Positions 22,701 through 64,000 of a stretch of DNA of 64,000 nt are shown here, piece after piece; within the stretch, counting starts at the first letter, position 1; the number at the start of each line of letters is the position of its first letter. The stretch is from Hymenolepis diminuta (lineage: Eukaryota > Platyhelminthes > Cestoda > Cyclophyllidea > Hymenolepididae), in assembly GCA_900708905.1 (NCBI GenBank), contig CAADRB010000004.1:2669685-2733684 (forward strand), written 5' to 3'. The notes under the pieces are model-generated. The model ran no database searches, was not told the origin of the DNA, and was given only the letters and a program-made list of their open reading frames with translations. The position numbers and the translations under genes were made by a program.

Positions 22701-25700
22701 TCGGGAGAACTCCCCTCTTTGTCCTTGAAGAATTAGGACCTCCGTCCATTCCATTGAGGGAGTTCGCGACTCGATTTGAGAAATAGGAAGCCCCGGGTGC
22801 TCCTGGTGATATAAAGCCTCCAGAGCCGTTCATTTTCAACTCGTTTATATAGCCAGGCTGATAGCCAGCAGCCTCTGAATTCTCTGAACACGCTGCGTCC
22901 CCAAATGTACCTCCTGGACCATATGCATCTCCCTCTCCGCTTCCTACTCCATTATCTGCACTACCATTATATGCCTACAACAAAAATATCGGACTTTATG
23001 TCTGTTTGAAATCATTGCACACCGTACGATGCATTTAAACGACGGAATAATGGTTTTCTTAAAAAAATTCTATTTTCAAAACACGAATCGACTATAATGG
23101 TTTGTCAATTCCAGGGAAAAATTTACCAACAATCCTCCCAAGCTGTATCTGGAATATTCTCCAGGCCCTGATGGAAATCGTGCTGAATAGCATCCAGTTC
23201 CAAATGGTGATGTTCCTTCTGATCCTGTTGGCGATGAAGGTTCCGAATCTATAATCAATGAATGAAAAATTCAATATCTTAATCAGTTTACCTTGAATGA
23301 GCTTTAATGAGTGTGCAGGGTTAAATGTATCACAATTAATCTCATCTACTTGCTCTTGGCTGCAAAATGATGCAAACAAATTGAGTGGCATGACCAACCA
23401 CGGAAATAAACCAAGCGGTCAATGAGCTCTGAGCTTAGAGGGCACTTGGTGTCGAGTGATGAAGGTTAAATGTTACGACATCACAATGCTAATTCTCCTC
23501 CTTTTAAAAATACACACAACTCTGTGCTACTGATTCCAAGTAAAACAAGACTAGAGTATCCTAACTTCATTATCCGCATGTTTATTGAGCCCCTCCGATC
23601 ATCCCCTGACTGGTATGTTTGTTATTCCCCCAATTCAGATGCTTTTGTGATAACATTTTATTATTATTATCTGAATACCCCAGTTAAAAATTAACGAAGA
23701 ATATTGAAATTGAACCATTTTAAAATATAAGATTTCATTGAAAAGCATCTTGTCTAGTTTTAGTAAAGATGTCACGATTTTCCTAGGCCATGATATGCCT
23801 ACCTAATTTGGTAACACTCAATCTTCTAACTGGAAGCCTGACATTTATAGAAACTGGGAAGAAATATGTATTTAAAAAATGAATTAAATAAATCACTCGG
23901 TGAGATCCAGCGGAAGTACCCAATGAAGCAAGTTCCAGAATCCTGGGGAATGTATTTCAAGAAAAGGAAATAGCAATTTGCTAACCTCAGTTACTTGCTA
24001 TGAATGTAACTACATTTCAATAAATTGAAAACAACAGAATTAAATCAAGAAGCTTTAAATATTGTGGACTTAATCAACTCATGAAACTGAAAGTCCGACT
24101 CTAAATTTTAATTTCAGAATATTACGCAGTAATCGTGTTTCATACGAAATTATGAATGACTCAATACTTCCAGAATTATAATAAAGTAAAACTTGTGATG
24201 CCCCGACTTCAGTACCCACTGTTTCTTGATCCCTCACCTTTCTCAGTCTTAGCACTATCGTGGGCACATTAAAAAAACAGCAACGAATTTAAATACATAC
24301 AAATGAAGAACTGTAATATATTTGAATGGATCACTACATAGAAAATGCTAATATTTTCTATTTTTTAAAATTTTCAAGTGGCTGTGTTTATCAGAGTCAT
24401 CTCTCTGTATCTCTGATGAAGTAAGACCGTATGATTTTACGAGTTGGCAATGGGTTATGCCCTTATCAACTACCTCTTTTTCATTAGCTGCAAAATGTAT
24501 TCTTTTGAAGTTCCATCCTCACCCTTACCCCTCTCTCTTCCTTTTCTGCCATGGAAACAGACTTTTGATATGTGTATATGAATGACGATTCGCTTTCATG
24601 AGTCCACAGTTTGACAATACCAGTGAAACGAAGGAAAGAGAAAAAATATACATGCGGACGTTGAGTAAAATTAGCTTGAAAAACTGCATACATTCATACA
24701 TTGAGCTGCTTCAAATAATTTTTTTCTGCCACTGCTTTTACATTGTACTTCATTGTCGCTACTCGTCCAAGCGTGTTAACTGGCTGGTTCTGAATAAGTG
24801 GCGTTTGTTTAAATACACAGGAATAGTGCACATCTCTCGATTAAAGAGAAGGAGGAAAAAGATAATGCATAAATACAGGCTATCAAGGACTGTCTATAAG
24901 AGAAAGCATTGTTTTAAGTGGAAATTTTTTGTATTAGCTGATAATATAAAACTTTGGATAGGTATTTGTTAGAATATGGTTTTTCTTAATAAGTATGTTA
25001 TGAAAAGTGAAGAAAGTACGCTCATCTACTCCGCGGTAGCCCACTTTTGAATACTTTCTATTAAATGGGTTTGAATTCAATCGGTTATATAGTATTTGAG
25101 ACTGAAATATGAAATGCCAACAAATTATAGACTCTAGAAATAAGAAAGTAATACACTCAATCCGAAACAAGGTCACTAGAGGACGTAGAAGAATGTAGAT
25201 TATGGGATTAAAACAGCAAAACTCTGCTTATATTAACCAAACGCTCTTCACCTTTTTGAAGGTGACAGTTGATGAACGCTTTCTTCGGATGTCTACCAAA
25301 TTAGAACTGGTTTATGGATTACAGAGTTTGGTTTATAAAAGCGACAGTCAACTCTCAAAACTAATTTTTAACCAGAATTAGTGTTTTAAAAGTATTCTTA
25401 AGATGTAAAGTACAAAGAGGCACCACAGGCATTTTTCTTTCCCCTTTCTTTGATAAATGGAACTTTGATCGTCATAACCTCCTCCTGTTCAAGTAGTTTT
25501 CAACAGAGAACTTAATGAATCAGTTTTCGATCAATTTGGTTTAACATATTTTAACGGATTACCAAACTTCTTCAAGTGACTTTCGTCAACTTAGAATTTA
25601 CTGAGGATGAAAGCATTCTGCCTGATCTAAAAAGGAATGACTAATCTACCAGGTGAAAATATATAGTTAAAAATTTGAAAATGCAAAAAAAACATCATTA

Positions 25701-28700
25701 ATTTTATTTTCCCTTAGAATTTACTTGCTTGTCTCCTCCGCTACCTAATGACTAAATTTAAATACAACCAAATCGAAATGGGACGGATTATCATTCAATG
25801 AAAACAATTGGTCAGCAACATTTGTATGTCGTGAATTGCGTTCTGGAATAATGGAATTACAAGGTACATTATATTCACTATGAGAAGTTGAACAATGCTT
25901 TGTCTCCCTCCCTTCCCCTCACGATATCATTCTTTGTTGGGCTATTTTTTTCCCATAATATGAAAAAAAGGTTGTAAATTTGTTAACACTATTGTGAATA
26001 ATAATGATTACATTCTTCTCTTGTAATTTAGCGTACTCAGAACTTTCAATTTTATAGCACACTTTTAGAGAACTATCATTCATAGGCGAAAAAGAGATTT
26101 TCATATAAGTATCCCTTGAATTGTGTTGGTCAGTTTAATTCGCAATGAAGATACTACTTTAGGAGAAAATACTTCAACACTTCGTTTAGCGAATGTGTCA
26201 CAGCACACAAAAGTGTTTGTGAGCGTAAACACACGTTAGACATCGAACAGAGTTAGAGGGAGTCACGAGTCTGAAATCGCAACACACAAACTTCAAGCTT
26301 TGATTGACAGGCTCAACATTTATGACGTCATTTTAAAGCGCACGTGAACCAGGGTGCTTTAGATGAATCATTTTAATTATAGAAAGAGAATTTTACGAAC
26401 TTTTGAATACGAAGAATTCTCTCCCCTCCCTCTACCAGATTTATTAATGAAACCAGTCTCAATCGTGAAGGATTTTCAAAGACTACACGCTATGCTACAG
26501 AGCCCCCCCTCCTCCCTAGACTCTGAGAGAACAATAAAAATTTTCGCTGCAAGAACTCAAAATATTAATGCATAATGATTGGAAGGATTGGGGAGGCGTG
26601 GTGTACCAGTAGATGAATTCTTGATTAAGTGACTGAGAGAGACGAGTAGAGATAAAAGGTAGCAACGCGAGGCTTTGTCAATCGCGTGCTTTAGCCCCTG
26701 CCTCTCATATTCACTCTGCCAGAGAGAGGCATATTGCGTGTCGTGTTTGATGGCAGACGTACCATCATGCAAGATTAGAATATTTAACTAACTAGAGGGG
26801 GGAATAGAAAACTATTTCCTCCTCCTACTTATCCCGCCACTCACCTTGAAATCGAAGTAAATCAGACTGGAATTTAGTCTTCAAACTTGTAATGTATCGT
26901 GAGCAAAAATCCTTCGAAAGTTCATTCACTTTGTGAAGCTCCTGAAGATGAATCCGCAGAACTTTAACAGCTAGAAATATCTATGCAAGAAAATCAATCG
27001 TTAAGTACTTTTCGAAGCTCTGGTATATCCCATCTAAACACAGTACTTCTTACTAATTCATTTAATTCCGGATCTGCCATAAAAACATTTAGAGGAACTT
27101 CCCGGTTGGCATCATCATTATGGGATTTTGATTTATCATCTGAAGAGCTAGTTTGAAGATGGCTCAGTCGAGATTGTTGAGGGGATTGGGACCTTTTAAT
27201 TGGTTGATTATTCACTAAGGATGAGGTCGTGCGATCGATAAATATACGCAGTTCTTCATTGAATAGATCCAGTGCTGGAGGTGAACAAGGCCGGACAGTT
27301 CCAGCTTCGCATTGTCGAAATAAGACAGCAAGAAGGGGATAGAGAGGATGCCTAAAATAATAAATTAACATATAATTATTTTAAGAAAAATAAATACTTT
27401 GGACAGGATTTCAGATGACAAGAAGGAGGAGGAGAATTGCTAAGAGTAAGGACTTTCGTGACTGGCAATTGATAAGGTACATGGAAAACCATGACAACTA
27501 ATGGGTTCTCCTACTGTTTGCTGTGCTCCTTGGTATTGAGCATAATGCATGTCTCAGGCTAGGGAATAGGGGCAAAACTTCCCCCGTCTTCCCTCTTCTA
27601 CTCCGCCCCATTTCTTTTGCTCCCTCCACCCTACTAACTGAGTTCTATCTACTAACGCCCATCACTGATAGCCTAGTCAGTCAAAATTGATAAATAATTA
27701 TCAACAGATTAAAATTTATTCGCTGGAAAATAAATACTCACTCTTTAATCATTCTCTTCTGGGCATCCAGGGATTGGTTGCTATTTTGGACGAATAAATT
27801 GTTCATTGCAGAAATTCTAGAAAGAAAACAGAGAATGAAATAAGTTGAGTGTATAGGCAAATGAATGCTTGCTATAATTTGATCTTGTGACCTCTTTCTA
27901 TAATGATTGCTCAATAACCTACAAAGTTTAGTGCAGAAAACATGCCACATCAGTACTTATATGCGGCTTATTATTCAAAATGTATAGGCTACTGATTTCC
28001 CCTACACCCATATTCAGTAATATCTACCCTGAATGATGAGATTTAACTTCCTCGATCAGAAAATGTTTAGGGAGAGGAACAAAATAAACCTTTAATTTCC
28101 ATCTGGTGTTAATTGGTAGTAACTTAGGTACAGTAGATGTTTACAATTTTAGCCTCCCTGCACGCAATCTCTAGGTCGATAACATCTCTAAAGTTGGCCT
28201 CCTGTGTGAGTAAGAAAGAAAAACAACACACGCCATCCACTCCACTGATTGACATCTCGTCCTGACGACTCGGAAGTCCTTCCGTCCGTCTGTACGTCAA
28301 TCATCCCCCAAGTGTCGCTTTAACTTCCCGCTGTCGACATTAGGTGTGCGCAAGAGCCAGAAAACAGTTTGTATAGAACCTTTTCATTAGACGGACAAAT
28401 TACTTTTCTAATTGCCCACAATCTGCGCAAAAAATTTCAACCATTAAATTTCTAAATAAATAAAATGCAAGCTTTTCTATCAGCATTACTAGATACTTTA
28501 TTGAATCAATGAGTACTGATTTCTACCAACTCGAGAAAAATTGATTATATACTTCTATTTCGCGCTTTTATAGACTCATGCGATTTCAATAAAATCGAAT
28601 ATTCTGGTTCTAAATTTCATTGGGAAACTCGAGTGAAAAAATCGAGATTCGCAGGGAACTTAAATTGGTCAGGTCTTTTACAATAAATAAGGGACTAAAA

Positions 28701-42699: not shown

Positions 42700-45320
42700 T
42701 GAGAAATGTGCAGAAAAAGGAATAAATCGGCGAATGGTACGATCGCCAGACAGCTGACAATCAATTTTTGTGAGCTTAACAACAAGAATGACGAAGGCGA
42801 CCATGATTGACTAAAAGATATCGATTATGTGCTATGGAAATACTTAATGATTTTTCACAATTGAAATGAAGTACTTAAATATGAGTTCTACGAGAATGAA
42901 GGATACATCACTTGAATTTTCAGCATGAAATTTCAAGAACTTTCTCATGGATGTCGAAGAGCAGAACTTCGTACTATTATTAGTAAAGAGAACGAAGTCA
43001 AAGATGGACGTCTGCAAAGTAGGTAACTAAACTTAATTGTGAAAATAATTCCCACTAAACGGAAAGCATGCAGGGACTTTTTATTATCCACAGTAGTACA
43101 AAAAGTTGTGTTATTTTTCATCGAGGAAAGCGACTGAAATCGGTCGACAGAATACCCACCAAATGATAATGAGGAGGGGATTTAAAAGATGTTGAGAGCA
43201 ACGTCTGGGTATCAGAGTCTTGCTCCATTTGATTGTTTGGATTTGGGTTGTATAGTATTTACTAAATGGATGATTCAGATTCCAAAACTATGATTTATCC
43301 CCTGGATTGCAGCAAATACTCATCTACGATGATTAGTGCCTACTGACTGTTTTTTAATCCTGATGCAGTTTTCATCATTTTTTCTTCCGAAGACTGAGAG
43401 GACAAAATGATTATATCTGATATTAAACTACTTGCATGATCTTAACAATTGAGAGGTGAGATAATTAAAAATTTTACGCTAACGGAGCTCCAAAAGTTGT
43501 ACTCACTCAAGGTGAACGTGGGTGAATACGAAATGGATATTTTTGTTCCCTTCAATATCAGTATCAAAGGGAAGAGAATTGGGAGAAGATTTTTCAGTTC
43601 AAAAGCTTGCAAAACCGCGTCACTTTGACTACACTTTCTTATAAATAGTAATTTATGACGCGTTTTGAAGTGTTCATAAAGTTGCACTATTTGACGCTCT
43701 GGAGCACTCACTTCTTTCAGAAATAGATAACTGACGACTCTCAGGGGAAGTATGTGTCATTCATGTTGATAAATTTAAGGCAATTTTAGTCTACTGATAC
43801 CGAAATTGTTTGAAGTCCTGTGCTTTAAAAGGAACTTATAGAGAATTTGTGCTAATTTCAGTAATTTAAAAATGGTAGTTTTCAATAAGTTATTTAAACT
43901 ATTAAGTTTGTCAAAAATTATGAAATAAAAACGAGCTTATAACAAAAATTCAAAAAGTTGAATACTACCACATGAAGGAAAATAATTTGCGAGATTATTT
44001 GATTAGCCTAAATTGGAAGAGTTAATAAAATTATTTATCAGGCACGGATACTGAAAATGCCATATTTTGAATAAATTTCTGCAATGATTCATGAAATGTC
44101 TCTCTCTAGAAGAATTATTAGTAGCTATGTTTACTAATTTTTTCCTATCTATTCCGGAGCTAAACCTTTACCTTCTACTGCCTTCGCTGCAGCAGCAGGA
44201 CAGAGGTGAAGATAGTTGCATTCCATAAGTTTTATTCATAGCCAACTTCGAAACGAGAAGTCAGATAGACCTGGGAGGCGGACTGGTCACTGAGGTCGTT
44301 GGGTGCGGAGGCTGTGGAGGGCTAGAGTAGAGTACAGAGGAAAGTGAATGTGTGTATAGACGCTCGTAGTGTAGTCCGTGCGATTAAAACTACCTATATA
44401 ATATGATGAGTAATTATTCAAAAGGAGAGTATTTTATCAGAAAAAATTTTAAACTTGAAAATAAGCGAAATATTACTTTTCCTCTCATAATTTGCGCATA
44501 TTCGTAAGGTTATGAAGAAGAATTATTTTTTAAATTAGCCAACAGCAACTTATCCTTACCGTATTAGATTAGATTCAGTCAGTCTCGATAAATTACTTAA
44601 ATGCCTGACTGTAATCAATTCATAACTTTTTCAAAACCCAATTTTAACATTAATTTAATTTCCAACGCAGGCATTAGATTCCCACCTTATTCAACTGGAA
44701 GTTAGCTAGGAATTATAAGTCTCTGGCCAAACACGGTGCTACTGATACTTTATAAGTACAATATATTTATTAAAACTAATATAAATCGGTAAAATATCTC
44801 AGTTGGAAATCGATAGGTTTTTCTATAATCCCTTCCAAAATAGCCTCCAAAAGTATATTCATAAGAATTAATTATAATATCGTTTTAATAATAATATGCG
44901 ACTTTGGCTGTTCCCAGTCAATGGCTAATGTTATAATATGAGAGAACGAAATAGTTTTAGATAACATTGAAAATTTAAAAATTTCAAATTGTAGTTTTAT
45001 ACAATCCCTATTTACATTTAGAATTAGTATCCTACAAATCAAAGTTTTTGCTGCCCTAACTCTGCTATGTTAAAATAATGTGACCTATTAAAATTCATAT
45101 CAGATAATTTTATTTTCCCAACCCTTGAATGAAAAATTGAAGTGAAGTGACAGAAATACCTTACCTTCAACTCAATAACAGTACAAGAGTAAGCAAAGTC
45201 CAGCAATTTATTCAAAGAACAAAGAACAATAGTTTTGGTACATTTTAACAAACTGTAAATTTTATGAATAATTAACGGCAAATTGTTAATTTAATTTTCC
45301 TTGGATAAAAGTTATTCATT
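42700..45320. other. Intergenic, repeat A copy and no gene
   Basis: Upstream side of the micro-exon gene. Contains a repeat A copy at 43.1-43.35 kb and a GC-richer patch at about 44.15-44.4 kb (CTGCAGCAGCAGG, GGAGGCGG) that could be regulatory. No supported exon. Confidence 0.5.
43125..43350 (+). repeat. Dispersed repeat A, plus copy
   Basis: One of the fuller copies: GAAATCGGTCGACAG, CCACCAAATGATAATGAGG, GAGAGCAACGTC, TATCAGAGTCTTGCTCCATTT, GGATTTGGGTTGTA and GGATTGCAGCAAATAC appear in the order seen at 59.1 kb and 48.6 kb. Confidence 0.7.
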
Positions 45321-47797: not shown

Positions 47798-48539
47798 GTG
47801 ACAATTGGGACATTGATATAAATCAGTAGGTGCGCAATGAATAGATGGACAGGGCAGACACTTGAGTCAGAATGAGTACGTCCTACATATTTCCATTTTA
47901 ATATAATCGGATCGCCGCCTATTTATCTCGAACAAGGCTTACGAACTGCATGATTTTAATTACCGCAGATAAAAGTTTAAGAGATGCATAATTTGAAGTA
48001 CTTCGCCAAACACTAAATGCAGAAATATTTCGAGAAAAGTAGTCAAAAGTTAACATTAATAGTAGAACTTGCAAGCATCTCCAACATTAATATTGGGAAT
48101 TAACTAGTACTGGAAGTGCACCTAATAACATCGAAACCATGACCTCTAACCTCGCCACAGTGATAATTATTTATTGATTCTATTTAATACACACATAAAT
48201 GGTGCCCACTTTGTACCACTGACCTAATTATAGAACATCAGGTTAATAGATAAGCTGGATGTTACATAGCTGCAGTAAATCAATTCACCTATATCTGTTC
48301 AAATTTAGAAAGGCTATTTGTTAATACTTTAAATTTTTCCTAGCTTATGACAGGGAGAATATTCTCAAACTGGAAGCTTCTTTCTTGGCAATAATTCCGA
48401 TGTCATACTATCGACAGATTTATGCAATTCAATGATAGTTTAGTGGCAAATAACATAAGGACAATTTATTAATATTACCCCAAGTAATACAAAATATTTA
48501 GCTTTTTTAATTTTGTGAAGTAATTAAAATGCGTAAACA

Positions 48540-48715
48540 GAAATTCCCACAAGTGATAAAGGGGATCGAAAACGGTCAAGGGATCATGGATATTGGATCT
48601 AGGTTGTACAATTTTTATTAAGTGGGTTCTTCATATTTCAAAACACAATTTCATTTCTGGTTCCCCGGATTGCAGTGAATGCTTGTCTAAAATGTCAAGT
48701 GTTTATTAATCATGA
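48540..48715 (+). repeat. Dispersed repeat A, plus copy
   Basis: CCACAAGTGATAAAGG, TTGTACAATTTTTATTAAGTGGG, CCCCGGATTGCAGTGAATGCTTGTCT and GTCAAGTGTTTATTA match the family in order. Confidence 0.6.
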
Positions 48716-49837: not shown

Positions 49838-50130
49838 AAGCTGTAATCCTAAATGGACTCTAAATATGCGACTAAGTGAGAAACGTCATGCGAAACATTA
49901 ATATTTAATTTAACAAAATCTAAAGTAATAGTTAGTATAACATGAGGCTCCAATATTTCATTGCAGATTTCAAATCTTATTTGCATTACTTTGATCACAA
50001 TTAATGGGTAGACTATTTGTGGTTGACTGACCTCATTTTTGATTGGTTCATGCATTTTACTTACCCACCCGAGTTATATATATACAATGATTCGAGTGAT
50101 CAAATTCAATAGTAAAGCGATTGAAGAATC

Positions 50131-50908
50131 ATGATCTCAAACGAGTATTATCAAAAGCTATTACAAGAACGTAAGTTAGATTATATTTTATAATTGATTT
50201 TCCTTCTTTAAAATCACTAAACGTCATTTATCATTGGGCTTTAACAACATTTTCTGCAGAAAATTGGAAATAAAGTTATCGTTAGGATAATATTAAGGTC
50301 CTTATATGTTCTCTGAAGAAAGCGGTGTTCTACCACCAATCTTAATTACGCCATCTATCTATTAACCAGCTGCTAGCTTAATGCCGCTGAACAGTCAGAC
50401 TTAGTTATCTAAACTTAGGAGAAGAATAGCTGAATCAATCTCTTGAATATATGGAAAGAGACTGTTCCCCTGTTAAGATAGCTGTCCTAATCGGGTAACC
50501 AATGAGTCCAAAATTAACTGTAAAAACAACTGAGGGGTCAGTAGAAAGCAGGAGGAATTCAACTGTTACCATTCATCGGAATATGATATACTAAATTCTT
50601 AATGCCAGTGCGTGAAATTAGGTTTACTGTAGGTTTCATATCAATTCTTCTGAGAAAAGCAGTAAGACTGATTATTATGTGAAGGATATTAATCCAAAAT
50701 ATTCATTTTAGTTTCCTATGTAGTTGTGCCACCACCAATGCCACCAATATCTTCAAGTGCTGAATGCTCCGTTGTAAACTCTTTACCTAGTAGGCCAATT
50801 ATGACAACAACGGTACAATCATCTTTTTATCTACCAACAGACCTACTATTCGAATTGCTGCAAATCAATGACGATTCAGAAGAGGAACAAGAACCTGATC
50901 TTCATTGA
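50131..50908 (+). CDS. Small two-exon gene, paralogue of the gene at 61823-62702
   Basis: Exon 1, 50131-50170, begins ATG directly after an in-frame TGA and ends GAAC-GTAAGTTAG in phase 1. Exon 2, 50724-50908, follows CTATGTAG (an acceptor 12 bases earlier is also in frame) and ends in a stop, giving 74 residues. Exon 2 starts VPPPMPPISSSAECSVV, then SLPSRPIMTTTVQSS, and ends in an acidic tail DDSEEEQEPD. The equivalent exon of the 62-kb gene aligns without gaps at 18 of 38 residues, with the same intron phase and similar splice sites, which argues strongly that both are coding. No signal peptide or known domain is seen; function unknown. Confidence 0.6.
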
Positions 50909-52089
50909 CCTTGATAAATTATAAAAGGTAATTTGATTAGGAGTGCAGAAATATGATGCAAAATTTAATTCAACTTTCTTTTTACCATTTTAGATTGGAT
51001 TTTATTGTCACTGGAATCAATTAGAAATGTATTTTTTTCAGAATTGATGCCTTCTTTTGTTGAGTAATTGAAACTAGGATGAATGTATGGCCTACTGATT
51101 GAAGATAGATGGTTGAAAGACGCTTTATCAATTGACCAGCATTAATTTGTGGCAGACTGATAAAAAAAGGAGAGAAAAGCTATAGATAGGTAAGAGTTGA
51201 CACAGCGGGTTAACGCAAATTACCAGCCGGCTTTAATCACCAATCCTATGTAAATAGTTTTTGAACAGAACATGACCGAACGAATATATTTGATTTCTAC
51301 ATCCCCTAAGTTTCCACCATCCATATCAATATACTAGCCCACACCGCTCCTGAGAGCTTACTAGTTATTTAGAACACAAACTGCATTTAGTTTGGCTGTG
51401 TTTTGTCCTCTGAACATCAGGAGCGTAGAGACGACTTCCACTAATTTATATTATAGCATTTGTTGAGTTAATAAGGTGTCTTAGAGCAACTGCACTTAGC
51501 TCTCTCTCCCCGGGTGAGTCTGTGGACACCTGTGGACAATTAGATAAATGAGGAAGAAACTAAATTTCCTAATCTGACAATAGCGCAGAAAAGCTGTACT
51601 TGACCAAGATTTTTCGTCGCATTAACGTCAGCCCATTAGGTGGATAATATTAATAAAAGGCAGCCTAAATAAAATGAAATTTAGGTAGTTATTAATGTAC
51701 ATTTAATTAAAATTGGAATTAAGTCTGCCGTCTGATAGGAAAGCTTTGCATTGATGTCCACAAATTTAGTCGTTCCTAATAAATTAAGCTGATCCAAATT
51801 CAAGCAACGAAAAGCGTTTGTTATATTAGAACGAAAATATATATTATATTGTTAATTTTGCGCACACTGATACTGAGAAGTGACCTTTTGACCTAGCAAG
51901 TAGTGAAATGTAGAGGATTTCAGTAATGGTATTAATTTCCAAGCCTATTTAGAAAAGAGTTCGGCAAAACCCTTACTTTGGCCTAGAGACTGGAGTTATT
52001 GAACCTCCCCGATTAGGAACTCAAATTCTTTCAGCTCCTTTGGTAGCCAGACTTAACCAGTGCGGTTTGCTATTCCGCTCACTAAGCGT

Positions 52090-52155
52090 ACGCCAATAGG
52101 TGTTGAACCCGTAACTTCCGACTTGTAGACGAGTACGTTAATTACTGCACGACGC
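52090..52155 (-). repeat. tRNA-derived SINE-like element
   Basis: The clearest of its kind: on the minus strand GTGCAGTAATTAACGTAC (A-box side, 52150-52133) and GGGTTCAACACC (a near-perfect B box, 52110-52099). The acceptor stem does not pair well, so it is probably a SINE or tRNA pseudogene and not a working tRNA. Confidence 0.5.
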
Positions 52156-52199
52156 ACAGAGTTTTGATGTAGTAATGCTTAAATAATAAGTTAATATAC

Positions 52200-55100
52200 A
52201 ATTAATAGGCGAAGAGTCTGAAAAATCTAATAAGTATCTGTAAAATATCTGACCTTCCATGAAATCAGTTCAATTACCCCCAAAATTCTTGAAAATAATC
52301 ATCCGAAATGAACATCTGATGTGTCCTGAAGATAAAACAGTGGGTGTGAAATGTTTAGGTTTCTAGAATAATTTCTTCAAATATAGCACTTTTTCAATTT
52401 TGGTGAATGGATTTTTGGAAGCCTTGCATCTTCATCAAAATCGTCTTTAATACGAACATTGACTCCGCGTTATGCCGGTCATACATTAAATATTATGTGT
52501 TGATTATACCGCGGAATTCTGAAGAGAGTAAATCGGAAGGATTCTGCGCTTGAGGAAACAACAAGACATTAAAGAGAAGATTGCGATAAACACTTAGTAC
52601 GACAAAGTCAAGACCCCAAAGGAATGATTTGTTTATTCGAAACAACTTATCAAAATTTAAATTTTCTGAAACCAGTTTGCCATGTATGAAGTCTCTGAAA
52701 AAATTACAATCTTAACATTATCCGAGACATTAGAAAGCCAAGCTAAGATTGAATTTTACAGCTTCCAAGCCTTTAGACACCAGAATCTTGAAGAGTAAGA
52801 GTCCCCGCTTCTAACTGACCCAACGTACATCTGTATGCCTTACATCACCAATTTCTATATAATTTTTATGTCGTCCGCTTTCAACCGAAAGACACACGTG
52901 AGCTCGTATGGATTTTGAAGTGTTAGTAGAGTAGGAAGCGTGATCTAAATAAATATTTTTAAAGCGTACCCTATAGATAAGACTAGGTGAATATGAAAAG
53001 GCATAAAGTCTAGAAGATCAATTTTGTCTGCTCCAGCAGGAACAATGGCGGCAAGTGGCCATAAATCTAGTTTTGTCAGGGGTCATTCTGACCTAACCTT
53101 TACGCCTCTTCGTATTTCCTTTCCGCCTGTAGGTTGCCAGCTGGAGGCTTATAACATTCATCTAGACTGCAGGCATGATTCAAAATTTGATATAATTTGA
53201 GTTTGAATTGAATAACTCTAGTGAATAAGGCATCTTTATATAGACCCTTTTTTGTTCCAATCCTGCTTAAATTCAGGCTTCTATGAGCAGATAAGTACTG
53301 TGGATGTTTCTGTTAACGGTGGGAAGCCCTAATCGTGTGCGATGCCAGCGAGTTTCGTACACAGAGACAGCACTTGCTTTTTTATTTATATTCGTCACTT
53401 TCTTGAAATATTTGAAGTACGAGTTTCGCAAAATATGACGATTTCCAATCTAAAAATAAAGTACGCTTAAAGTGTTAATTTAAACCTCAATTGTGCTGAA
53501 ATCCTGAGAGTTACGTCGAAATCTATTAGAAGAAAGTTCATTTTGATGATTCGACATTTTTCGAGATATTTTTTACAAACTAGACATTTTGACTTTTGAG
53601 AATTGTATTCCTCGCTTACGTTTGGAGAAGTAAATGGCCATGATTAAAAATGAATAGCATTTCTTTAATATTTATTACTTAGTGCGTTCTCTTTATAATT
53701 GTCGTAGAGGCTGTGCTACAGCCCATTGCTAACAACTAGTGACAGACAACCATCTTTTCAAAAGCAGAACACCAAGTGTTAAATAAAGACTGAATTCCAG
53801 CGTATAAGATCAAAAAATACTCAGAATAGTGTGGGAGAGAGGGAGATGAGAGGAAAGAAACAAAGATGGAAACCTGAAGAAAGGGAATGAGAAGGCTTTT
53901 GTGATTTGAGCTATAAGCGAATGTACAAGAGCTTTTGTGAAACAAAGATACCGTAAGTCACAAAGCACGTTAGAAGTTGGCTCACGACCTGGCTAGCCAA
54001 ACTAAAGCATACGCCTGCATGTAGAATGAACTAAAGATGAAGCTGATCTGGAAGCCCAGCGTGGTCATTGGCTAGATCAAGCAATATAGTCACCTGTCGC
54101 TGGAAGTCTGTGGTAATAAGAAAGATGACTGCCGTCTCTCTCCCTGTTTATAATAATCGATTTCTGGTCCCTGTTTCTATTTTTCATTCATCTAATAGTC
54201 TATATGCCCCTTTATATTTAACCGCCTTATATGTCTGATACGCTCTAATAAAGACCACACTTCCTACAAAAACTTAGATGAATCAGCTACAAAGATGAAT
54301 CAGTAAATATTAAATGTGCGTGTGGGCATATACGGGTGGGGTACTTTTAAAGAGAGTGCGGTTTGAAAATAATTGCGAAACGAAGGTTAATAATCCACCA
54401 ATATAATTTCGATTACAATAAAAAAATATCCGCTTTTATTTCAAATGCATTCATTTGTTATTTTGAATGAATTGCACACCTGGTTTAGAGGTTACATATA
54501 TTATTGAATACAATATGTCGTGATTTAAGGCGAGTTTATTATACCATCTTAATGGAAAGGTATCAAAGAGTCCGCATCGAGTCGATTCCATACTTCTGCT
54601 GTTGTTTCCACTGCTGAAAATCAATCGCTCTGACCCTTCGGCTTCCGTCATATTCGTACTTGGATTCCTTATATCAATTGGTCGACCAAATATTCCTCAT
54701 CTGAATGCTCTTATGGAAACGTATTCGAAAGTACAAGCAAATGAGCAGTTTCCTGCTGATAATAATTTTTACCATCTTATTGCCCATTTTCAGTGGCGGT
54801 TTAAATTCTCGTTTCCAACCTACATTTTGAAGGGTGAGTCCTATTGGCATTCGTTTAAATTTGCACTCTTGGTTTTAACTCATTTGGTTGCAAGTGCCAC
54901 TAGAGTTTCAACATCATTTGGCGCTAAAAAGACCAAAGCAGCCGTTTTCCCAAACATGAAACATTGTGGCAAGAGATTCTAATTCATTTTACTTCAATGT
55001 TAAGCGATTTGTCTTCTTTTTTCCTTACTTGACATTAATTTTAGACTTTTTAGGGTTAAGATAACAACTAACTACTGACAGCTAACACCAATTCTAGAGC

Positions 55101-56041
55101 AGAAGACCAGGAGCTGTTCTGGACAAAATGTATTGATCAAGTCACAGTGAGGATTTGAGTGGGCAAGAGAGAAATAAGGAACAAAGGCGATGAGAGAACA
55201 GCGTAAAAGCAGGTGTATGACAATCATGTCTGCCCGCGCGTCTCAGACGAAATACTCAGACAGTTTATATGAGTCACTTGGGCAAGGGCGAGAATGAGAT
55301 ACGAGTGCCGATGTACTTTCAAATGAAACAGGACAGTTAAAGAAAAAGGAGAGTCGGTAAACTTGTCTAGATATGACGGATAGGGGTTTGAGTCATAAAG
55401 ATATCACTGCGGCTTCGTGGAGGAAAAACGGATATATGTAATTTTGAAAATACATGGAGGGTCCCACTTCAACTTGCATGAGTTCAGATTAACTTGATTT
55501 ATGCCAACGCATCTCTTAAATAAAGGCAGTATATCACAACCGTAAGAAGAAATAATAACCATTTTGCTCCGCTTCCAACAATAAAAATGCAATTTCCTTT
55601 TTAATTCTGCCATTGATAAAAGACACTTTGTAATTATAACCATTTGTTTAAACCGATACCGATCGAGATTGAGTTTCCTTAGTACACTCGTGTGTACTAA
55701 TATGATAATGGGTCCTAGTTACTGTCATCATAATTAAACCTTGATTAATGATTACATTATTGTTTTAACTGTTTAAAAAATGACTAAAATTATATATTTT
55801 TAATTATATATTACGAATATTAATTAATTTAATAATTTAATTAATTAATTTAAATAACCCGTCGTTTTCTGAATATAGAAATATAATTTTACTTTTTAAC
55901 CGCGATACAAAGAGTTACGGGTTTTGCCATTTAGTACATCAACAAAATGACTGTTTTAAATTAGTTGAAATACCTTTCGTTTGTTTATGGACCGGTACAC
56001 TTGGTTTTATTATGCTATTTTGTTATTAAAATTCGCCTCGA
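52200..56041. other. No supported gene
   Basis: Mostly AT-rich unassigned sequence. The longest frame, 54602-54982 on the plus strand, has neither an ATG start nor recognisable motifs. An AT-only tract lies at 55789-55856. Confidence 0.5.
55789..55856. repeat. AT-rich low-complexity tract
   Basis: Almost pure A/T with TAATTAAT-type repetition. Confidence 0.85.
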
Positions 56042-56429
56042 TTACGCTCTTGTAAGCTCTGACATATTTAAGATGTCTTTGTTAGCCTCAAGTGCCTGGT
56101 GATGGTTGTAGGAGGTATGAATTATTCTAGATGGTATGCTCATCAATTCAGTTAAATTGTGACAATTCAGTAAGCCCCGAATATCGCGGACAAGAGCTAA
56201 TCCAGAAATCAAAGCATAGGTAGCCGCCACATGCGGGATCATACGTGTGCTCAGAGTAATTCACAAAGAAGACAAAACCGACAGCCTATCTAAGCACACT
56301 TCATTTCACCCTTTACATACGAATTAGAAGCGTAGCTAACTCTCCTTCTTACAACTCTTTTTCCACCCTCTCCTATACACCATTAGCCTACCTCAGTTCT
56401 TTCTTCCGATGTAAGAAAGGTTGTTGCAT
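56042..56429 (-). CDS. Tentative small two-exon gene of unknown function
   Basis: Exon 1, 56429-56392, reads ATG then QQPFLHRKKEL and ends AG-GTAGGC in phase 2; exon 2, 56249-56042, follows a pyrimidine-rich tract ending CTCTGAG and closes with a stop; 81 residues in all with a 142-nt intron. The protein has a mildly hydrophobic segment (AATYALISGLALV) and a His/Asn-rich end. Start context is ordinary and no family is recognised. An in-frame alternative acceptor inside exon 2 (GGATTAG) would suit a phase-1 exon. Evidence is splice-site and phase agreement only. Confidence 0.35.
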
Positions 56430-56473
56430 CTTGTCGGCTTTAAGATTACTAGATTATAAAGGGGTTAACAATA

Positions 56474-56992
56474 GCGGATGCTGCACCAATAAGTTTGCTT
56501 GCTAATCCTCAGTAATCTCAAGAAGTTTAACTAGTTGCTAACACATACAACTCGCCCCTAGCGGAGTCCTCTAGTATAAATTTACTCCCACAGTTAGCTA
56601 GGCTATGCCCGAAGTAGCAAGAACAAAGAAGGTATCGAGTGGAGAGCGTTTATTGCTCAATTATGGCTCGTTGCCAAAAACTTAGTCATTAAATATAATC
56701 AACGCTACGCTGCAGGGATATTCATCACTGATGAAGTCATTTGAACCTGTAGCAGATGCTACACAAACAAGCCTTCTTGCTAAACCACAGTAATCTTTTT
56801 AGGAGTTCAACTAGTTGCTAACCCACAACCATCCTCTAGCAGGGTCCTCTAGTATAAATTTGCTACGTCTACAGTAGCGAGAACAAAGAGGTGTCTTGTA
56901 AAGAGAATTTGTTACCGTTTTATTTAAACTATCAATATATTAGTCATTAAATATGTTCAACCCCACGCTGTAGGAATGGTGACCGCTGACTG
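56474..56992. repeat. Diverged direct tandem duplication, period about 278 bases
   Basis: Unit 1 starts GCGGATGCTGCAC at 56474 and unit 2 GCAGATGCTACAC at 56752. Both continue with CTTGCTAA, CAGTAATCT, CAACTAGTTGCTAAC, CTCTAGTATAAATTT, GAACAAAGA, TAGTCATTAAATAT and ACGCTG in the same order. Non-coding; two copies only. Confidence 0.85.
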
Positions 56993-58337
56993 GCAGGGAA
57001 GAAATCTGCACGTACGTCCGCACTTTTGAGAATGTCCTAGCGCACGCAAGGTTCTCATGATCAGCTAATTTTATAGATAAGTATTACTTGAGGTCGTCAT
57101 ATGCTTCTATTGAATGACTACCCCTTCTCCACATAAGTATTAGTCCTTATGGTGCTATCTATTCCTCTTACACGTTCAAAAGTTTTAGTGTAATTAAATT
57201 TGTGAAAGTTTTCTTTTCCCAAGATAGGCTATTAATTGCAGTCATTATAAGTAGTAATTTGATGAATAGTTCCATTACAATAAATTGACAAATCGAGACT
57301 TGTATAATTAATTATTTTATTTAAAAGTTGATGGAAGGCCAATATCACGTGTTTTAGCAAGTGTGGTTTGAATTGACCTGCCTAGTTCCCATTAAATATT
57401 TTTCGAATAATTATTTAATTAATACTCATGCTCCGAGTTGCAAATATATGTCTTTTAATATGGAGCTCTTAAGTTAAACTTAAAAATACTTCTTTGACCT
57501 AATAAATAAACATAATTATCTGTTAAAATGGCCTGGTACTCAAACAAAATTTTGATGTTTTGACCTCGAAGTGGACTCAAATGTTGTACGTTTCACACAA
57601 AACCGTTTTAATAAACAGATTTACTACGTTGATATCGTGTTAGCCTTTACCATCCTGAAAGTATCTTAGCGATTAGGTGAAAAATTCATTTAAATGTGTC
57701 AATCAGGCACTTAAATTAGACACCAATTCAAAAAAGTTCTCGATTCCGTAAAAATGAATTCAGTGAAAAAATAGTGGGTGAATCTTGACATTTGAAGTTC
57801 GTAACATTAATGTATGAAGTAATGGACTATATTCAAGAAGTAAATAATATGATTTGAAACTGATTTCCTTCCCTCAATATTCCCCTAATTCGGTTGCTTT
57901 TTCAAGATGGACATTGTCAGTTTTGCGTTGCTATGGAAAATAAATGACTAAATAGCAGTTATTTTGCTACTTTTTACAAAAGATATCATTTACATATGTT
58001 TTCTATTCGTTGCCTTGCAAAAGATCCTCTTTTAAATAGAAAATAATTAATTATTACAACGGTGAATAGTAAAATAGAAATTAAAGACCTATAAAGTGGA
58101 TGTATTTTGAAAAAATTCCCTTGACATTTTTGCTATCAAATCCGCTGATCAATGAATCAGGAATTAAAATAAACAATTCGATTGATCCATTGGAGTTCCC
58201 GATTGATTTGAAGAATCAGCCAACCAGGTATGATTTGGTACGGCATTTCGTAAGTCTCCTTCGTTTGTATCATTTATCAGACAACCTTGAAATAAGGTAA
58301 TGCATTAATAAATTAATGAAAGATTAATAAAGTTGGG

Positions 58338-58929
58338 CTAGATTAATTGTAGATGAGACAAACCTTGACCATTAGAATTGGCTTCGCATTCTCTTTCAGA
58401 CGTTTGGGAATTATTCAACTTATAGTTAGTGTTAAAAGAAAATGTACGTAGACCGTGTTGTGTTTCTTTAACTTCTCGTTCTTTTTCGAATTCAACAGGC
58501 TCGTTGATGCTACTAGTTTTAGAATGACGTAACCTATTAATTTCCTGCTTCAACATCTCGTCGGCTCTGCAAACCATTATTGAATCGCTAGCCCACCTGG
58601 CAGCATTCAATGCTTCTTGCCGTCCTTGTTCGCCTGTCGGTGTATCGGAAAGCTCTGTCGTAGAAGCATGAATCGAGACATCTTGGCTCAATGATTCTTC
58701 CTTATGCACCGGTTGCACTTTAAAAGACTTACCTAAAAGAAAAAAACCATACCGGTTCAGCACATTCAATACAAAATCGATTAAACTTTAAACAGAGCAT
58801 CGGTTTTAAAATAGATATTGCGCAACTATCTTAAGGAACGAAAATGATACCAAATTTGAATACAAGAAGCTCACATTTATCGATGCTTTTTTCCATATCT
58901 TTCGTACAAGTTATTATACTAATATTCAT
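58338..58929 (-). CDS. Tentative two-exon gene, hydrophilic protein of unknown function
   Basis: Exon 2, 58732-58338, follows a very strong acceptor (TTTTTTTCTTTTAG) and is open for 131 codons to its stop. A matching phase-1 exon lies 142 bases upstream: 58929-58875 (ATG, NISIITCTKDMEKSIDK, then T-GTGAGC); a shorter start at 58896 is possible. Total 149 residues. The body is polar, with a Gln/Glu/Arg helical centre (GRQEALNAARWASDSIMV, ADEMLKQEINRLR) and an Asn/Ser-rich tail; no membrane segment. Exon 2 could instead splice on at CAAG-GTTTGT. I recognise no family. Confidence 0.45.
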
Positions 58930-59084
58930 TATTAATGACTGTTGGTTAACATTGACTAGCGAAAAACAAAACAACCTATTAATCTCGATTTGACCTTTAA
59001 TTAGTTCACGCGACCAATTAATATCCAATGCTGATTGGCACTATTTATTATAATCCATATTAATACGAAAAATTCATAGTTTTA

Positions 59085-59490
59085 ATCGACTGACATCCAA
59101 CAAATGATAAAGGCAATAGGATCAAAATGCTACAGAGAGCAACGTCAAGGTATCAAAGAGTCCTCCTCCATTTGACATTCGGATTTGGGTTGTACAATAT
59201 TTAATAAATGAGAATTTCACATTCACGACATTCAGTGCTAATTAGGCAGTATTTCACGTTCGCAAAATGTTTCAGTAGCATTTCAGAAAATGCATGTTTG
59301 AGATGTTCAGTGCTTATTGACCAGTATTACTTAATCATCCTGATCGTTCTTACAGCTTCAGTTCAATTTTTCAGTGCTTGAGGAAGCAAATGGTCTTTCG
59401 TGATATTCTGCTGCTTCAAATTTTGACATAGCAGAGATGAGAAATAAAATAAGCTCAATAAGCTGTGTTCAATCAAAGGAAATTCGCAAG
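59085..59490 (+). repeat. Dispersed repeat A, long plus copy
   Basis: Runs from CGACTGACATCCAACAAATG through GAGAGCAACGTCAAGG, TATCAAAGAGTC, GGATTTGGGTTGTACAATA and CATAGCAGAGATG to CAATAAGCTGTGTTCAATCA. It is in inverted orientation to the copy at 61.04-61.5 kb. Confidence 0.75.
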
Positions 59491-59583
59491 AAATCGATGC
59501 TGATAAGGGGACCAATCAAGATGAGGTCAGCATAGGTCGTAATGGGATCATCGGTAATTAATATGTTGATATTTGAAGTTTAA

Positions 59584-59642
59584 TTTATAATATAATATAT
59601 ATAATATATAATAATATATAACATAATATAATGCATATATAA
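59584..59642. repeat. AT microsatellite-like tract
   Basis: Nearly pure TA/ATA repetition. Confidence 0.9.
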
Positions 59643-60402
59643 TGAAATTTTTTAAGATTTTATCAAGTAGGAAGGAGAAAGATGAATGCCAAGCATACTC
59701 AGATTATTGAAACTCAATTTGTCATTGAGGCTAAGTTTGATACATAGAATTTCGCGTGCTTAGAATTAAACTTCGTGGTTGTTTATATCATTCTGTCTGT
59801 ATCTTGACTATGAGAAGTAAATACATGCATAAGAAAATGTACAAAATGCTTAAATAACTGTTGATATACTGAAGTTGCACAATCACTTTCTATTCTTTTG
59901 AAATCAAAAATGAAATGACATTTTAAATGAGGGTAAAAGATGCCTCCATCGAGTGCGTTCGAGTAGATTGCTCTTAAATTATTCCGAGGTGTGAAATTTT
60001 TTTCGTTGGCAAAATGGAAACAATCACAACTGTATCTGGGGTTCAGGGTGGAATTCTCCAAATTTGAATACCTCCTCTCCTTAGCAAGTATATTGTTGAA
60101 AGCTATGCACCATTCTCTATCGAAATCGCATCTTTGATTAAATCTTTACTAAAAATGACAATAGCCTAAAAACAATTTCCGAGGAGAAGTACGGCTGACA
60201 TCTTCGTATAAGATTCTGAACATAGTTGTATTTTATTCATTTTCCATGGCGGGGTTAAAAGTCTTGACAGCTTTTCGTAATGAAAAGCTAACAAAGTTCA
60301 TAGAGAGCATGTCCATCATAAAGAGAGCACAATAACAGTGTTAAGGGGGAATTTTAGAGTGGGTAGCGGAATTGAGCGTCAGGAAGTCAGCAGAACACTA
60401 CT

Positions 60403-60537
60403 TCATCTAAGTTCCTGAGTTATTATTTCAACTTGTGCTTTCTTTTCATCATCATCGTAAGGAAAAACTGAGTGATATACTTTCATTTGATTTCGGAGCC
60501 ATTTGACACAATTTTTGTAGCATCCATCTAAAAGACA
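60403..60537 (-). CDS. Candidate terminal coding exon, gene unknown
   Basis: After TTTTGTCTTTTAG the minus strand reads GCYKNCVKWLRNQMK, then VYHSVFPYDDDEKK and AQVEIITQEL to a stop; the exon begins in phase 1. The composition is protein-like. The same frame is open up to 60612, so the exon may be longer. No partner exon upstream could be fixed, and no family is recognised. Confidence 0.35.
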   Translation of the reverse strand, partial: CLLDGCYKNCVKWLRNQMKVYHSVFPYDDDEKKAQVEIITQELR

Positions 60538-61039
60538 AAATCTACTAGTTGGCAGACGACACAAGGTTTTAGTACCTACTGAAATCAATTTGACTAATGT
60601 GCGCTTATCCAGTTAATTTTCTTCTTCATAGTTTTTATTACAACTTATTCCCACTCTTGAAATATTTTGGCAATTTTCTATATTAACTAACAACTGCATT
60701 GTTAGTTCTGTCTCCCCTCCCTTCTGATCAGATCAACAGGTGAACGAGCTCTGAATAGAGTGGACATAATCTAACTCTTGAATCCCAGAATTAAATGGCG
60801 AAAATTGAATATTGTGAATTTATTTTCTTGAAGCTATGAATAACTCAATGCTCCCAATTTCAAGCAAAGATCGGTAATATTACTCGCTTATGTTTGACCC
60901 TCTCTCTCTTTTTCGTTTCCTCTTCCCCTTACTCAGATGCCTTCCCTCAAACTTGGCCTTGACATCAATGAGAATATATTTCTGATTCCCTCTACTTCAG
61001 TCAGTACCGAAATTTATAATTACTCGATATCGCGATAAA

Positions 61040-61530
61040 AATTGTACTATACAAAATTATTCATCTTTGATAAACACAGCTTATTGAACTCTGTTAGCTT
61101 AAATTTTCAGCTGTCTCATCTCTTCAATGTAGGAATATCGTATAAAATCATTTGCCTCCTCAACCATTGAAAAAATTGAATTGAAGTTGCAAGATCGACC
61201 GAACTGTAAGTTGTTGAATCTCACAGAAGACCATTTGCTAACTCAGCCAGTGGAAGCGGCAAGACTGGTCCTTCTTGATTAAACAATACTGCCTAATTAA
61301 CTCTGACTGTCGTGAACGTGAAATTCTCATTTAGTAAATATTGTACAACCCAAATCTGAGTGTCAAATTGGTCAAGACTCTTTGATACCTTGACCTTGCT
61401 CTATGTATCATTTTGATCCCCTCATCTTTGCCATCTATTGCATTTTCTGTCAGTCCATTTCAGTTACTTTCCCACAATCAAGACTCGCGATTTTTTATTA
61501 CTGAAGGTAATAATAGTGCTATAATATAAC
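61040..61530 (-). repeat. Dispersed repeat A, long minus copy
   Basis: Reverse complement of the 59.1-kb copy: AACACAGCTTATTGAACTC, TTTAGTAAATATTGTACAACC, GGTCAAGACTCTTTGATACC, TTGACCTTGCTCT and CAGTTACTTTCCCACA all match in order. Confidence 0.75.
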
Positions 61531-61822
61531 AAATATTTACTAGATTTAGTTGCAAGAACTTAAGTTGGAAAAGGATATTAAAAGCAAAAGTAAATATTTT
61601 GTCTACGTTAGATTCCAAACATTGCATTTCGGGGTAATACTTAAACTAAATTGAACAAAATCATGTGGAATAAATTTATTATTTTATTAAAATTAACATT
61701 TGAAAAAGGTTCCTTTTATGTTGCACTAACTGCTCAGTACTTATGGCATCTTTTAAACTCGTGGTGAGAAGATAATTACATTACCGTTCGAAATATAAAA
61801 AAATCTGGAAAGTGGGTTGAAA

Positions 61823-62702
61823 TTAGCTTTCTATTCCCCAATACACCGGTAAACCGAAATTTTCCAATTGAGATCTTCTATTACCATAAAATTGCGGATG
61901 GTAGACAGATGGTTGCATGCGTATTGTCATTGTTGGATTTCTTGGCAGAGAATATACTACGGTGCATGGAGCCTTCCAAGTCATTGATGGCATTGATGGT
62001 GGCCTGACTACATAGAAAAGTAAAAGCCAAATTATTAGATTGTGAGTGAACATAATTACCAATTGTACTACTTTACTATGAATAATTTTCATAAGATAAC
62101 TAAAAGAAATGAGCCCGACTTCACGAGGTATTTGTAGAAGCGCTTTAACTTTATTTAAGAATTTAGTACACCGTATTCTAATGATTTCGTAGGAAAATGC
62201 TCAATCACACTTGAATTAGTAATCTTCATCAGTGACAATCTCCTTAATAAGCAAACATCCTCCCCTCATTGTCTACTTGATCTGTCTTTTTATTCTATCA
62301 TTAACCTTGGATCACTAGCTGACCTCAACCTAATTCGACTATCTGTTAACACTTATGCCTTAGATTAAACACAGTCCCTTCTATAAGATGGACATTTAAC
62401 CAAACCAGATATATTGTTAGTAGTCTAAAACCATGGACTTCTCAGTTTACAAGAAAAAGCCAAAAGTCGCAATACCGGTTAATATGTGATGTTGTTGGGA
62501 TAGTTTTCATTTGAGAAAATTTAAGAAATAACACATTTTAGCACTAATCTGTTTCAATTTGAATACCAAATTGATTTTACTTGCCAAAAATGAATGAAAA
62601 ATATTCACAAATGCAATCTCTATTTTTTAACTTACATATTGGCTGTACTTGCTCTTCCTGTGGAAACTGTCCACCAAATCCGTTGAAAACTTGCCAGAAC
62701 AT
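61823..62702 (-). CDS. Small two-exon gene, paralogue of the gene at 50131-50908
   Basis: Exon 1, 62702-62636, starts ATG and encodes MFWQVFNGFGGQF and a Gln/Glu stretch, ending CCAATAT-GTAAGTTAA in phase 1. Exon 2, 62007-61823, follows TTTTACTTTTCTATGTAG and ends in a stop, giving 83 residues. Exon 2 reads RPPSMPSMTWKAPCTVV, then SLPRNPTMTIRMQPS, and closes with GLPVYWG. It aligns without gaps to exon 2 of the 50-kb gene (shared P-P-x-M-P, A-x-C-x-V-V, S-L-P-x-x-P-x-M-T, Q-x-S-x-Y-x-P). The first exons are unalike and the C-termini differ (aromatic here, acidic there). Function unknown; no signal peptide or known domain is evident. Confidence 0.6.
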
Positions 62703-64000
62703 AATTTGCCAACCAGTTTATTATTGAATTAGATTATTCGAATCAACAACGTGTGCTCGGAACAAATCTATCGAAAATGAGTTAAATGTGTTAAATTGTC
62801 AAGGCTGGTTTAATTTGAATGAACAATAATAAAATTAATATCTTTTGAATTTGGATTAACCTGATGTAAGGTCATGATGGCTTGAAGTCTGTTTGCAATA
62901 ATTACGCAATTGTTTGTTTTATCACTGAAATATAGTCAAAAGTTGGATGCCCTGATTATTAGTCAGTTTAAATCGTCCTATTTAATTCAATAATGACACT
63001 TTTCCTAGAATCACTCCTGTGATTCAATTTGTAGATGTGTGGAGAACCTTCAATAGATTTTTGTTCGAAGTAACATCTAAATTAGAATAGTGATTTGATA
63101 GTACGTCAACAAACAAACAGAGCTCATGCTTCGATTGGGAGGAAAAATCTACTCCCGCGATCGTCACTTTTATCAATATGCAGCGGAAGAATATTGAAAT
63201 AAAGACGCCTAACTTAGCAGATATTTTGCATTAGGCATTAGTTATCAGTAAATGTCGTTGCTAAAGACAAAGATCGATTAACACTCATATAGTGATCTTG
63301 AAGAATGGGATTTAATTCTTGCAAGGTAAAGATTTCTATTGAACTTGAGTGGTGATTTTCGTCTCTTTGTACTTAAGACCTCTCTGATCCGAAATATCTG
63401 GAGAATTTTAACTGGAAACTGTTTGGTGAATAATTTTACCGGATTTCAGCATGTGACGCACAATGATTGATATTCTTTTCCCTCTTTTTAAATCACTTAT
63501 TTCATAAGTGGTCTTTTGGCCTCTTGATCATCCATCAGTTCCACTCACAGTGTGTTGACGCTAGCTATACTTGCTAGCTTACTTTTCTCTCTTTCTCATT
63601 ACATACGGTACTTCAATTTATCTTTCCCGTCCCACTAAACCCTTTTTTCTGATTTTAAAATGGCTCCTTTTTCCTGTTAGTCCTTAGGAAGATCATTAGG
63701 CTTGTAACGAGATATTCCGAAGCCTAAGTTGGTCAATCCAGCACAAAGAGCTTTACTTTAACTTCTTTTTGCTCGAAACTGCATCTCCATAGCTTAATAT
63801 AGATTACACTAACTTTCCTTCAATATCTCTCAAATTTTTAACACTTAAAACGATTTTACCTAAAGGAGGTTTGAATGCTATCCTCCTTTTAGTCATCCGT
63901 AAAAATTGGGCAGATCAAATTATTGAATATTTGACCATCTTTAGGGTGCATTAATTCAACAACCATAATTTAGCATTATTTATTTTCTCTTTGAAGGAAA
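62703..64000. other. Right-hand flank, no gene seen
   Basis: Upstream of the 62.7-kb gene. No exon with acceptable splice borders and motif support on either strand; no long repeat recognised. Confidence 0.55.

What the first reader, a model, noticed from the sequence alone, without database searches (positions are those of the whole stretch)
50131..62702. An undescribed pair of small paralogous genes in opposite orientations
Seen: 50131-50908 (plus) and 62702-61823 (minus) both have a short first exon, a phase-1 intron with GTAAGTTA donor and CTATGTAG acceptor, and a second exon aligning gap-free at 18 of 38 residues around P-P-x-M-P, A-x-C-x-V-V and S-L-P-x-x-P-x-M-T. Protein-level similarity with divergent third positions indicates selected coding sequence. 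The first exons and C-termini differ. I know of no family with this motif.
Basis: partly seen in the sequence, partly recalled or inferred. Interest (0 to 1): 0.75.

Follow-up and report, generated by a model that had tools for sequence, protein, structure and literature searches.

The report
Two duplicated small tapeworm genes
In the rat tapeworm genome two small, already predicted but unnamed genes are diverged copies of each other lying face to face about 12 kb apart; the duplication is real, but whether their protein products matter is not shown.

Summary
The pair is real and correctly placed. Each unit has a short exon 1, a 553- or 628-nt phase-1 intron and a 185-nt exon 2; 18 of 37 codons after the split codon encode the same residue. 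Both are already deposited predicted proteins of Hymenolepis diminuta, 'unnamed protein product': undescribed in function, not in existence. The deposited A model uses an acceptor 12 nt upstream of the shared CTATGTAG. Our searches found no third copy in the 170.6-Mb assembly, no other match in 5.8 billion proteins and no Pfam family; the units are not a repeat.

The inference of selected coding is weak: dN 0.39, dS 0.60, with 18% of bootstraps showing no excess. Third positions are not significantly more divergent (p = 0.14); an antisense frame, with one stop, scores higher. The last 111 intron nt match at 73 of 107, the first 111 exon nt at 78 of 109. The tightest islands are noncoding: 25 of 29 before the ATG, 25 of 30 inside the intron. 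Exon 1 and the exon-2 tails show no similarity beyond random.

Best reading: local inverted duplication of a small, apparently lineage-restricted gene. Function is inferred only.

The parts
50088..50116 (+). Gene A: conserved 5' element (TGATTCGA..ATTCAATA.TAAA), presumed core promoter / 5' UTR; a TATATATATA run lies just upstream
   Evidence: 25 of 29 identical to B, 0 of 300 random pairs reach the score; 2 places in the genome at up to 3 mismatches, 0 for the control pattern; sequence
50131..50170 (+). Gene A exon 1 (coding, phase 1)
   Evidence: not similar to B exon 1 beyond random
50171..50723 (+). Gene A intron (553 nt) if the shared CTATGTAG acceptor is used; the deposited model ends it at 50711
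50573..50602 (+). Gene A: conserved island inside the intron
   Evidence: 25 of 30 identical to B; 2 places in the genome at up to 3 mismatches, 0 for the control
50724..50908 (+). Gene A exon 2: shared 37-residue segment, then an acidic tail (whole 74-aa protein pI 4.05)
62717..62745 (-). Gene B: conserved 5' element
62636..62702 (-). Gene B exon 1 (coding, phase 1)
62008..62635 (-). Gene B intron (628 nt); agrees with the deposited protein
62155..62184 (-). Gene B: conserved island inside the intron
61823..62007 (-). Gene B exon 2: shared 37-residue segment, then an unlike tail (whole 83-aa protein pI 9.03)

Best explanation
The two units are paralogous small protein-coding genes of the rat tapeworm, made by a local inverted duplication of one two-exon ancestor that included its start region and intron. 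Shown: paralogy, frames open from start to stop, shared 5' element, two copies found, deposited gene models. Inferred: each is transcribed from its own copy of the short start-site element, spliced once, and translated into an 8-10 kDa non-secreted, mostly disordered protein. The shared segment P-P-x-M-P ... A-x-C-x-V-V-x-S-L-P-x-x-P-x-M-T would act as a short binding segment, while the tails have become unlike (acidic in A, and B's whole protein basic), as in loosely constrained, quickly diverging lineage-restricted genes.
For: Homology of the units. Both proteins are deposited as H. diminuta predicted proteins: B identical over 83 aa, A differing only by the upstream acceptor. The published annotation of this species used RNA-seq with STAR, BRAKER2 and MAKER2 (PMC6890685, passages); that these two models come from it is inferred. 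Codon usage of A exon 2 is reached by 1.1% of 618 presumed non-coding open windows. No stop arose among 37 codons despite 37 nucleotide differences: no stop together with the observed BLOSUM score is reached by 5.2% (A to B) and 4.0% (B to A) of 50,000 random placements. The exon alignment scores higher than an equal length of intron end (43 against 13). No further copy found by protein search, which does find A from B and B from A (E = 0.013 and 0.0017).
Against: The dS-dN excess is not significant (pS does not exceed pN in 18% of 2000 bootstraps); identity test p = 0.21, BLOSUM p = 0.09. An antisense frame scores 96 against 86 for the sense frame, with one stop in each copy. Intron end 73 of 107 against exon 78 of 109 identical. 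B's codon usage is like non-coding windows (26% of 618 reach it) and at the 7th percentile of 30 coding windows; the training set had only 2,039 codons. No orthologue found to test conservation. AlphaFold2 is of low confidence for both (pLDDT 57.4 and 59.7) and neither supports nor excludes a protein function.
Confidence: 0.6

Rival explanations
1. A duplicated noncoding unit: a transcription start or regulatory module, perhaps giving a noncoding RNA, was copied in inverted orientation; the open frames and gene models are incidental.
For: The tightest pieces are noncoding (25 of 29 before the ATG, 25 of 30 in the intron); there is only a small step in identity at the splice acceptor; the coding tests are weak. 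A Meis/PKNOX-type homeobox gene lies on the minus strand at about 27 kb, so regulatory DNA nearby is conceivable.
Against: Both frames are open to a stop and share an acceptor, gene models are deposited, A's codon usage is coding-like. Exon 2's first 111 nt align without any gap at 74 of 111, and the exon scores 43 against 13 for the intron end.
Confidence: 0.22
2. One living gene and one decaying copy: A is a functional coding gene and B a relic whose frame happens to be open.
For: A's codon usage is coding-like, B's is not; the exon-2 tails are unlike (1 of 23 codons give the same residue).
Against: B keeps start, donor, acceptor and stop, and its model is deposited.
Confidence: 0.13
3. Ends or relics of a mobile element.
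For: Inverted placement about 12 kb apart; dispersed repeats lie nearby.
Against: Each unit finds only itself by DNA search at E up to 1; three patterns drawn from the pair find exactly the two copies; no Pfam match.
Confidence: 0.02

Closest known systems
Species-restricted predicted proteins of tapeworms; the H. diminuta genome paper counts 1,152 of 15,169 proteins as unique to this species among the cestodes compared (PMC6890685, passage)
   Same: Short predicted proteins with no relative found elsewhere and no domain
   Different: A retained local pair with a shared start-site element; whether these two are among the 1,152 was not checked
Micro-exon genes (MEGs) of flatworms (recalled)
   Same: Small flatworm-specific proteins
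   Different: Two exons with a 185-nt second exon and no hydrophobic leader by inspection; not a run of tiny symmetrical exons

Membership tests
Lineage-restricted (orphan) gene pair | No homologue outside the lineage | tested here: inconclusive
   Only the two own entries in 5.8 billion proteins in three searches, but that search needs shared 5-residue words and did not list B from A or A from B; other tapeworm genomes could not be searched as DNA
Lineage-restricted (orphan) gene pair | Copies homologous beyond chance | tested here: met
Lineage-restricted (orphan) gene pair | Selection on the encoded protein | tested here: inconclusive
Lineage-restricted (orphan) gene pair | Transcription and splicing | not testable with these tools
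   No reads held; only deposited models
Transposable element | Repeated copies in the genome | tested here: not met
   Two places per pattern at up to 3 mismatches; whole units find only themselves, at a sensitivity that also misses the partner unit
Any Pfam family | Match above cut-off | tested here: not met
   0 families at E up to 10 for both proteins
Micro-exon gene (MEG) | Many tiny symmetrical exons | tested here: not met
   Two exons in the models; definition recalled
Micro-exon gene (MEG) | Signal peptide | not tested
   No predictor was run; no hydrophobic leader seen by inspection of exon 1

The most novel reading that the evidence does not exclude
A two-member gene family born within the Hymenolepis lineage, whose start-site element and intron island are under stronger constraint than its protein, so that the pair is kept chiefly for how it is expressed (or for its RNA) while the two proteins diverge to opposite charge.
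Probability: 0.15. Interest if true: 0.4.

Novelty: new member of a known kind. Interest (0 to 1): 0.17.

Why it matters
Local duplication of small lineage-restricted genes is common in animal genomes (recalled). If both are translated, the pair is a small case of fast divergence after duplication in a laboratory tapeworm for which RNAi and in situ hybridisation have been used (PMC12582415, passages). On present evidence it is ordinary.

Tried and rejected
Mobile-element reading: rejected, the units are not repeated. Larger inverted duplication: other matches between the two flanks (A side 43125, 48470, 47405, 45855) also match elsewhere in the 264 kb or the genome, i.e. they behave as dispersed repeats, whereas the three islands of the pair have their best partner in each other and only E >= 0.09 matches elsewhere in the 264 kb. 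The weaker flank matches were not followed. Third paralogue: none found. The only further protein hit, on contig C1, had E = 1.89 at 28% identity; of that locus I read bases 1-1200, not the match itself at 1501-1638. The pattern searches allow 3 mismatches from the pair, so a third copy as diverged as A is from B could be missed by them; the protein search can see that divergence. A profile scan of the window plus 100 kb on each side gave the next best hit at E = 0.55. Frame-shifted C-terminus: the other frames printed show no agreement that I could see; no score was computed. Solved structures: nothing below E = 1 for A or for the A+B profile. Rfam at gathering thresholds and tRNA: nothing in the window. 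The bacterial promoter scan does not bear on a eukaryote. Six paper searches (listings only) showed no paper on these two genes; I had no locus tag to search by. For PMC6890685 and PMC12582415 I saw passages only.

Full report
Source. The window lies at C4:2669685-2733684 of a 170.6-Mb assembly in 203 contigs. The protein predicted for B is identical over 83 aa to a deposited 'unnamed protein product [Hymenolepis diminuta]', and A matches a second one. Contig C1 here is 6,937,183 bases and the longest published scaffold is 6,937 kb (PMC6890685, passage). I take the window to be H. diminuta, the rat tapeworm. Two figures do not agree exactly: the deposited proteins are listed on a contig of 5,178,434 bases while C4 has 5,164,437, and the paper gives 177 Mb in 719 scaffolds; another version or a filtered copy of the assembly may explain this.

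Observation. A: exon 1 50131-50170, intron 50171-50723, exon 2 50724-50908. B: exon 1 62702-62636, intron 62635-62008, exon 2 62007-61823. Proteins of 74 and 83 aa result. The 37 gap-free codons after the split codon give 18 identical residues. The deposited A protein has 78 aa because its model uses the acceptor ending at 50711 (TTTTAG), 12 nt upstream; B reads TTTTAC at the aligned place and so lacks that site.

Anatomy of the similarity. Segment by segment against 300 first-order random pairs each: 5' element 25 of 29 (0 of 300 reach the score); exon 1 no better than random (170 of 300); 5' half of the intron no better (120 of 300); 3' half of the intron best piece 25 of 30 (1 of 300); whole intron 3 of 300; exon 2 first part 72 of 95 (0 of 300); exon-2 tail with 3' flank no better (196 of 300); upstream 200 nt and 1 kb no better (199 and 260 of 300). 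With fixed flanks and global alignment, against 500 base shuffles: the last 111 nt of the introns give 73 of 107 identical and score 13, the first 111 nt of exon 2 give 78 of 109 and score 43, and 0 of 500 reach either; the first 100 nt of the introns give 62 of 89, reached by 45 of 500; the 50 nt before the ATG give 34 of 47, reached by 0 of 500. So the recognisable duplicated unit runs from just before the ATG into exon 2; identity changes little at the splice acceptor, while the score, which counts gaps, is higher in the exon.

Is it selected as protein? NG86 over 37 codons: dS 0.60, dN 0.39; pS does not exceed pN in 18% of 2000 bootstraps. Codon-position identities are 25, 28 and 21 of 37; third against the others, Fisher p = 0.14. 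Random placement of the same differences reaches the observed identity in 21% and the BLOSUM score in 9% of 20,000 trials; requiring also no stop, the BLOSUM score is reached in 5.2% and 4.0% of 50,000 by direction, the identity count in 9.4% and 3.3%. Antisense frame 1 scores 96 against 86 for the sense frame, with one stop in each copy; the other four frames score 27 to 70. Codon usage, trained on only six long open frames with 2,039 codons, is reached by 1.1% (A) and 26% (B) of 618 presumed non-coding open windows; against 30 coding windows A lies at the 83rd and B at the 7th percentile. Together this is compatible with coding, mildly favours it, and does not establish it.

Copy number. Protein searches of the genome found the two loci and one chance-level place; a consensus of both found only the two; DNA patterns for the exon-2 start, the 5' element and the intron island each found exactly two places at up to 3 mismatches and no control match. 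The plain DNA searches with the whole units found only themselves, which shows that this search would miss a copy as diverged as A is from B; the protein search does find one from the other (E = 0.013 and 0.0017). No third copy at E below 0.55 within 100 kb of either side of the window.

Relatives. Three searches of 5.8 billion proteins gave only the two own entries. That search needs shared five-residue words and did not list B from A, so orthologues in other tapeworms are not excluded. Pfam: none. The genome paper states that 1,152 of 15,169 predicted proteins were unique to H. diminuta among the cestodes compared, and that its RNA came from three adult worms (passages), so a pair of this sort is not unusual there.

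Structure. With a two-row alignment AlphaFold2 gives mean pLDDT 57.4 and no reported secondary structure for B, and 59.7 with two short helices for A. This fits disorder but so shallow an alignment cannot show it. A (74 aa) has pI 4.05, B pI 9.03. By inspection neither has a hydrophobic leader; no signal-peptide predictor was run.

Verdict. A real local inverted duplication of a small gene, with two copies found, already in the databases without a name. Interest is low unless expression or orthologues show otherwise.

Noticed in passing
59119-59253 (+), 61285-61419 (-), 43125-43268: A short dispersed repeat of about 140 bp; with the 59119 copy as query, 763 candidates in the genome, 40 scored and all 40 matching, itself included. 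The copies at 59119 and 61285 are inverted to each other and 89% alike; the other 38 scored are 78-86% alike over shorter stretches.
   Followed up: partly
48470-48571: A second, more diverged repeat; 16 of 16 scored candidates match in the genome, itself included.
   Followed up: partly
26997-27380 (-): N-terminal Meis/PKNOX domain at the Pfam cut-off (27.2 against 27 bits); an open frame at 22627-22974 (-) holds a stretch that looks like the start of a TALE homeodomain (by eye, recalled; no Pfam match). Likely a Meis-type homeobox gene.
   Followed up: partly
58338-58787 (-): A 149-codon open frame between the two genes with a hydrophilic translation; no Pfam match.
   Followed up: no
56472-56583 and 56750-56861: A direct repeat, 79% identical over 114 columns.
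   Followed up: no
1482-1511: A run of 30 N in the window.
   Followed up: no
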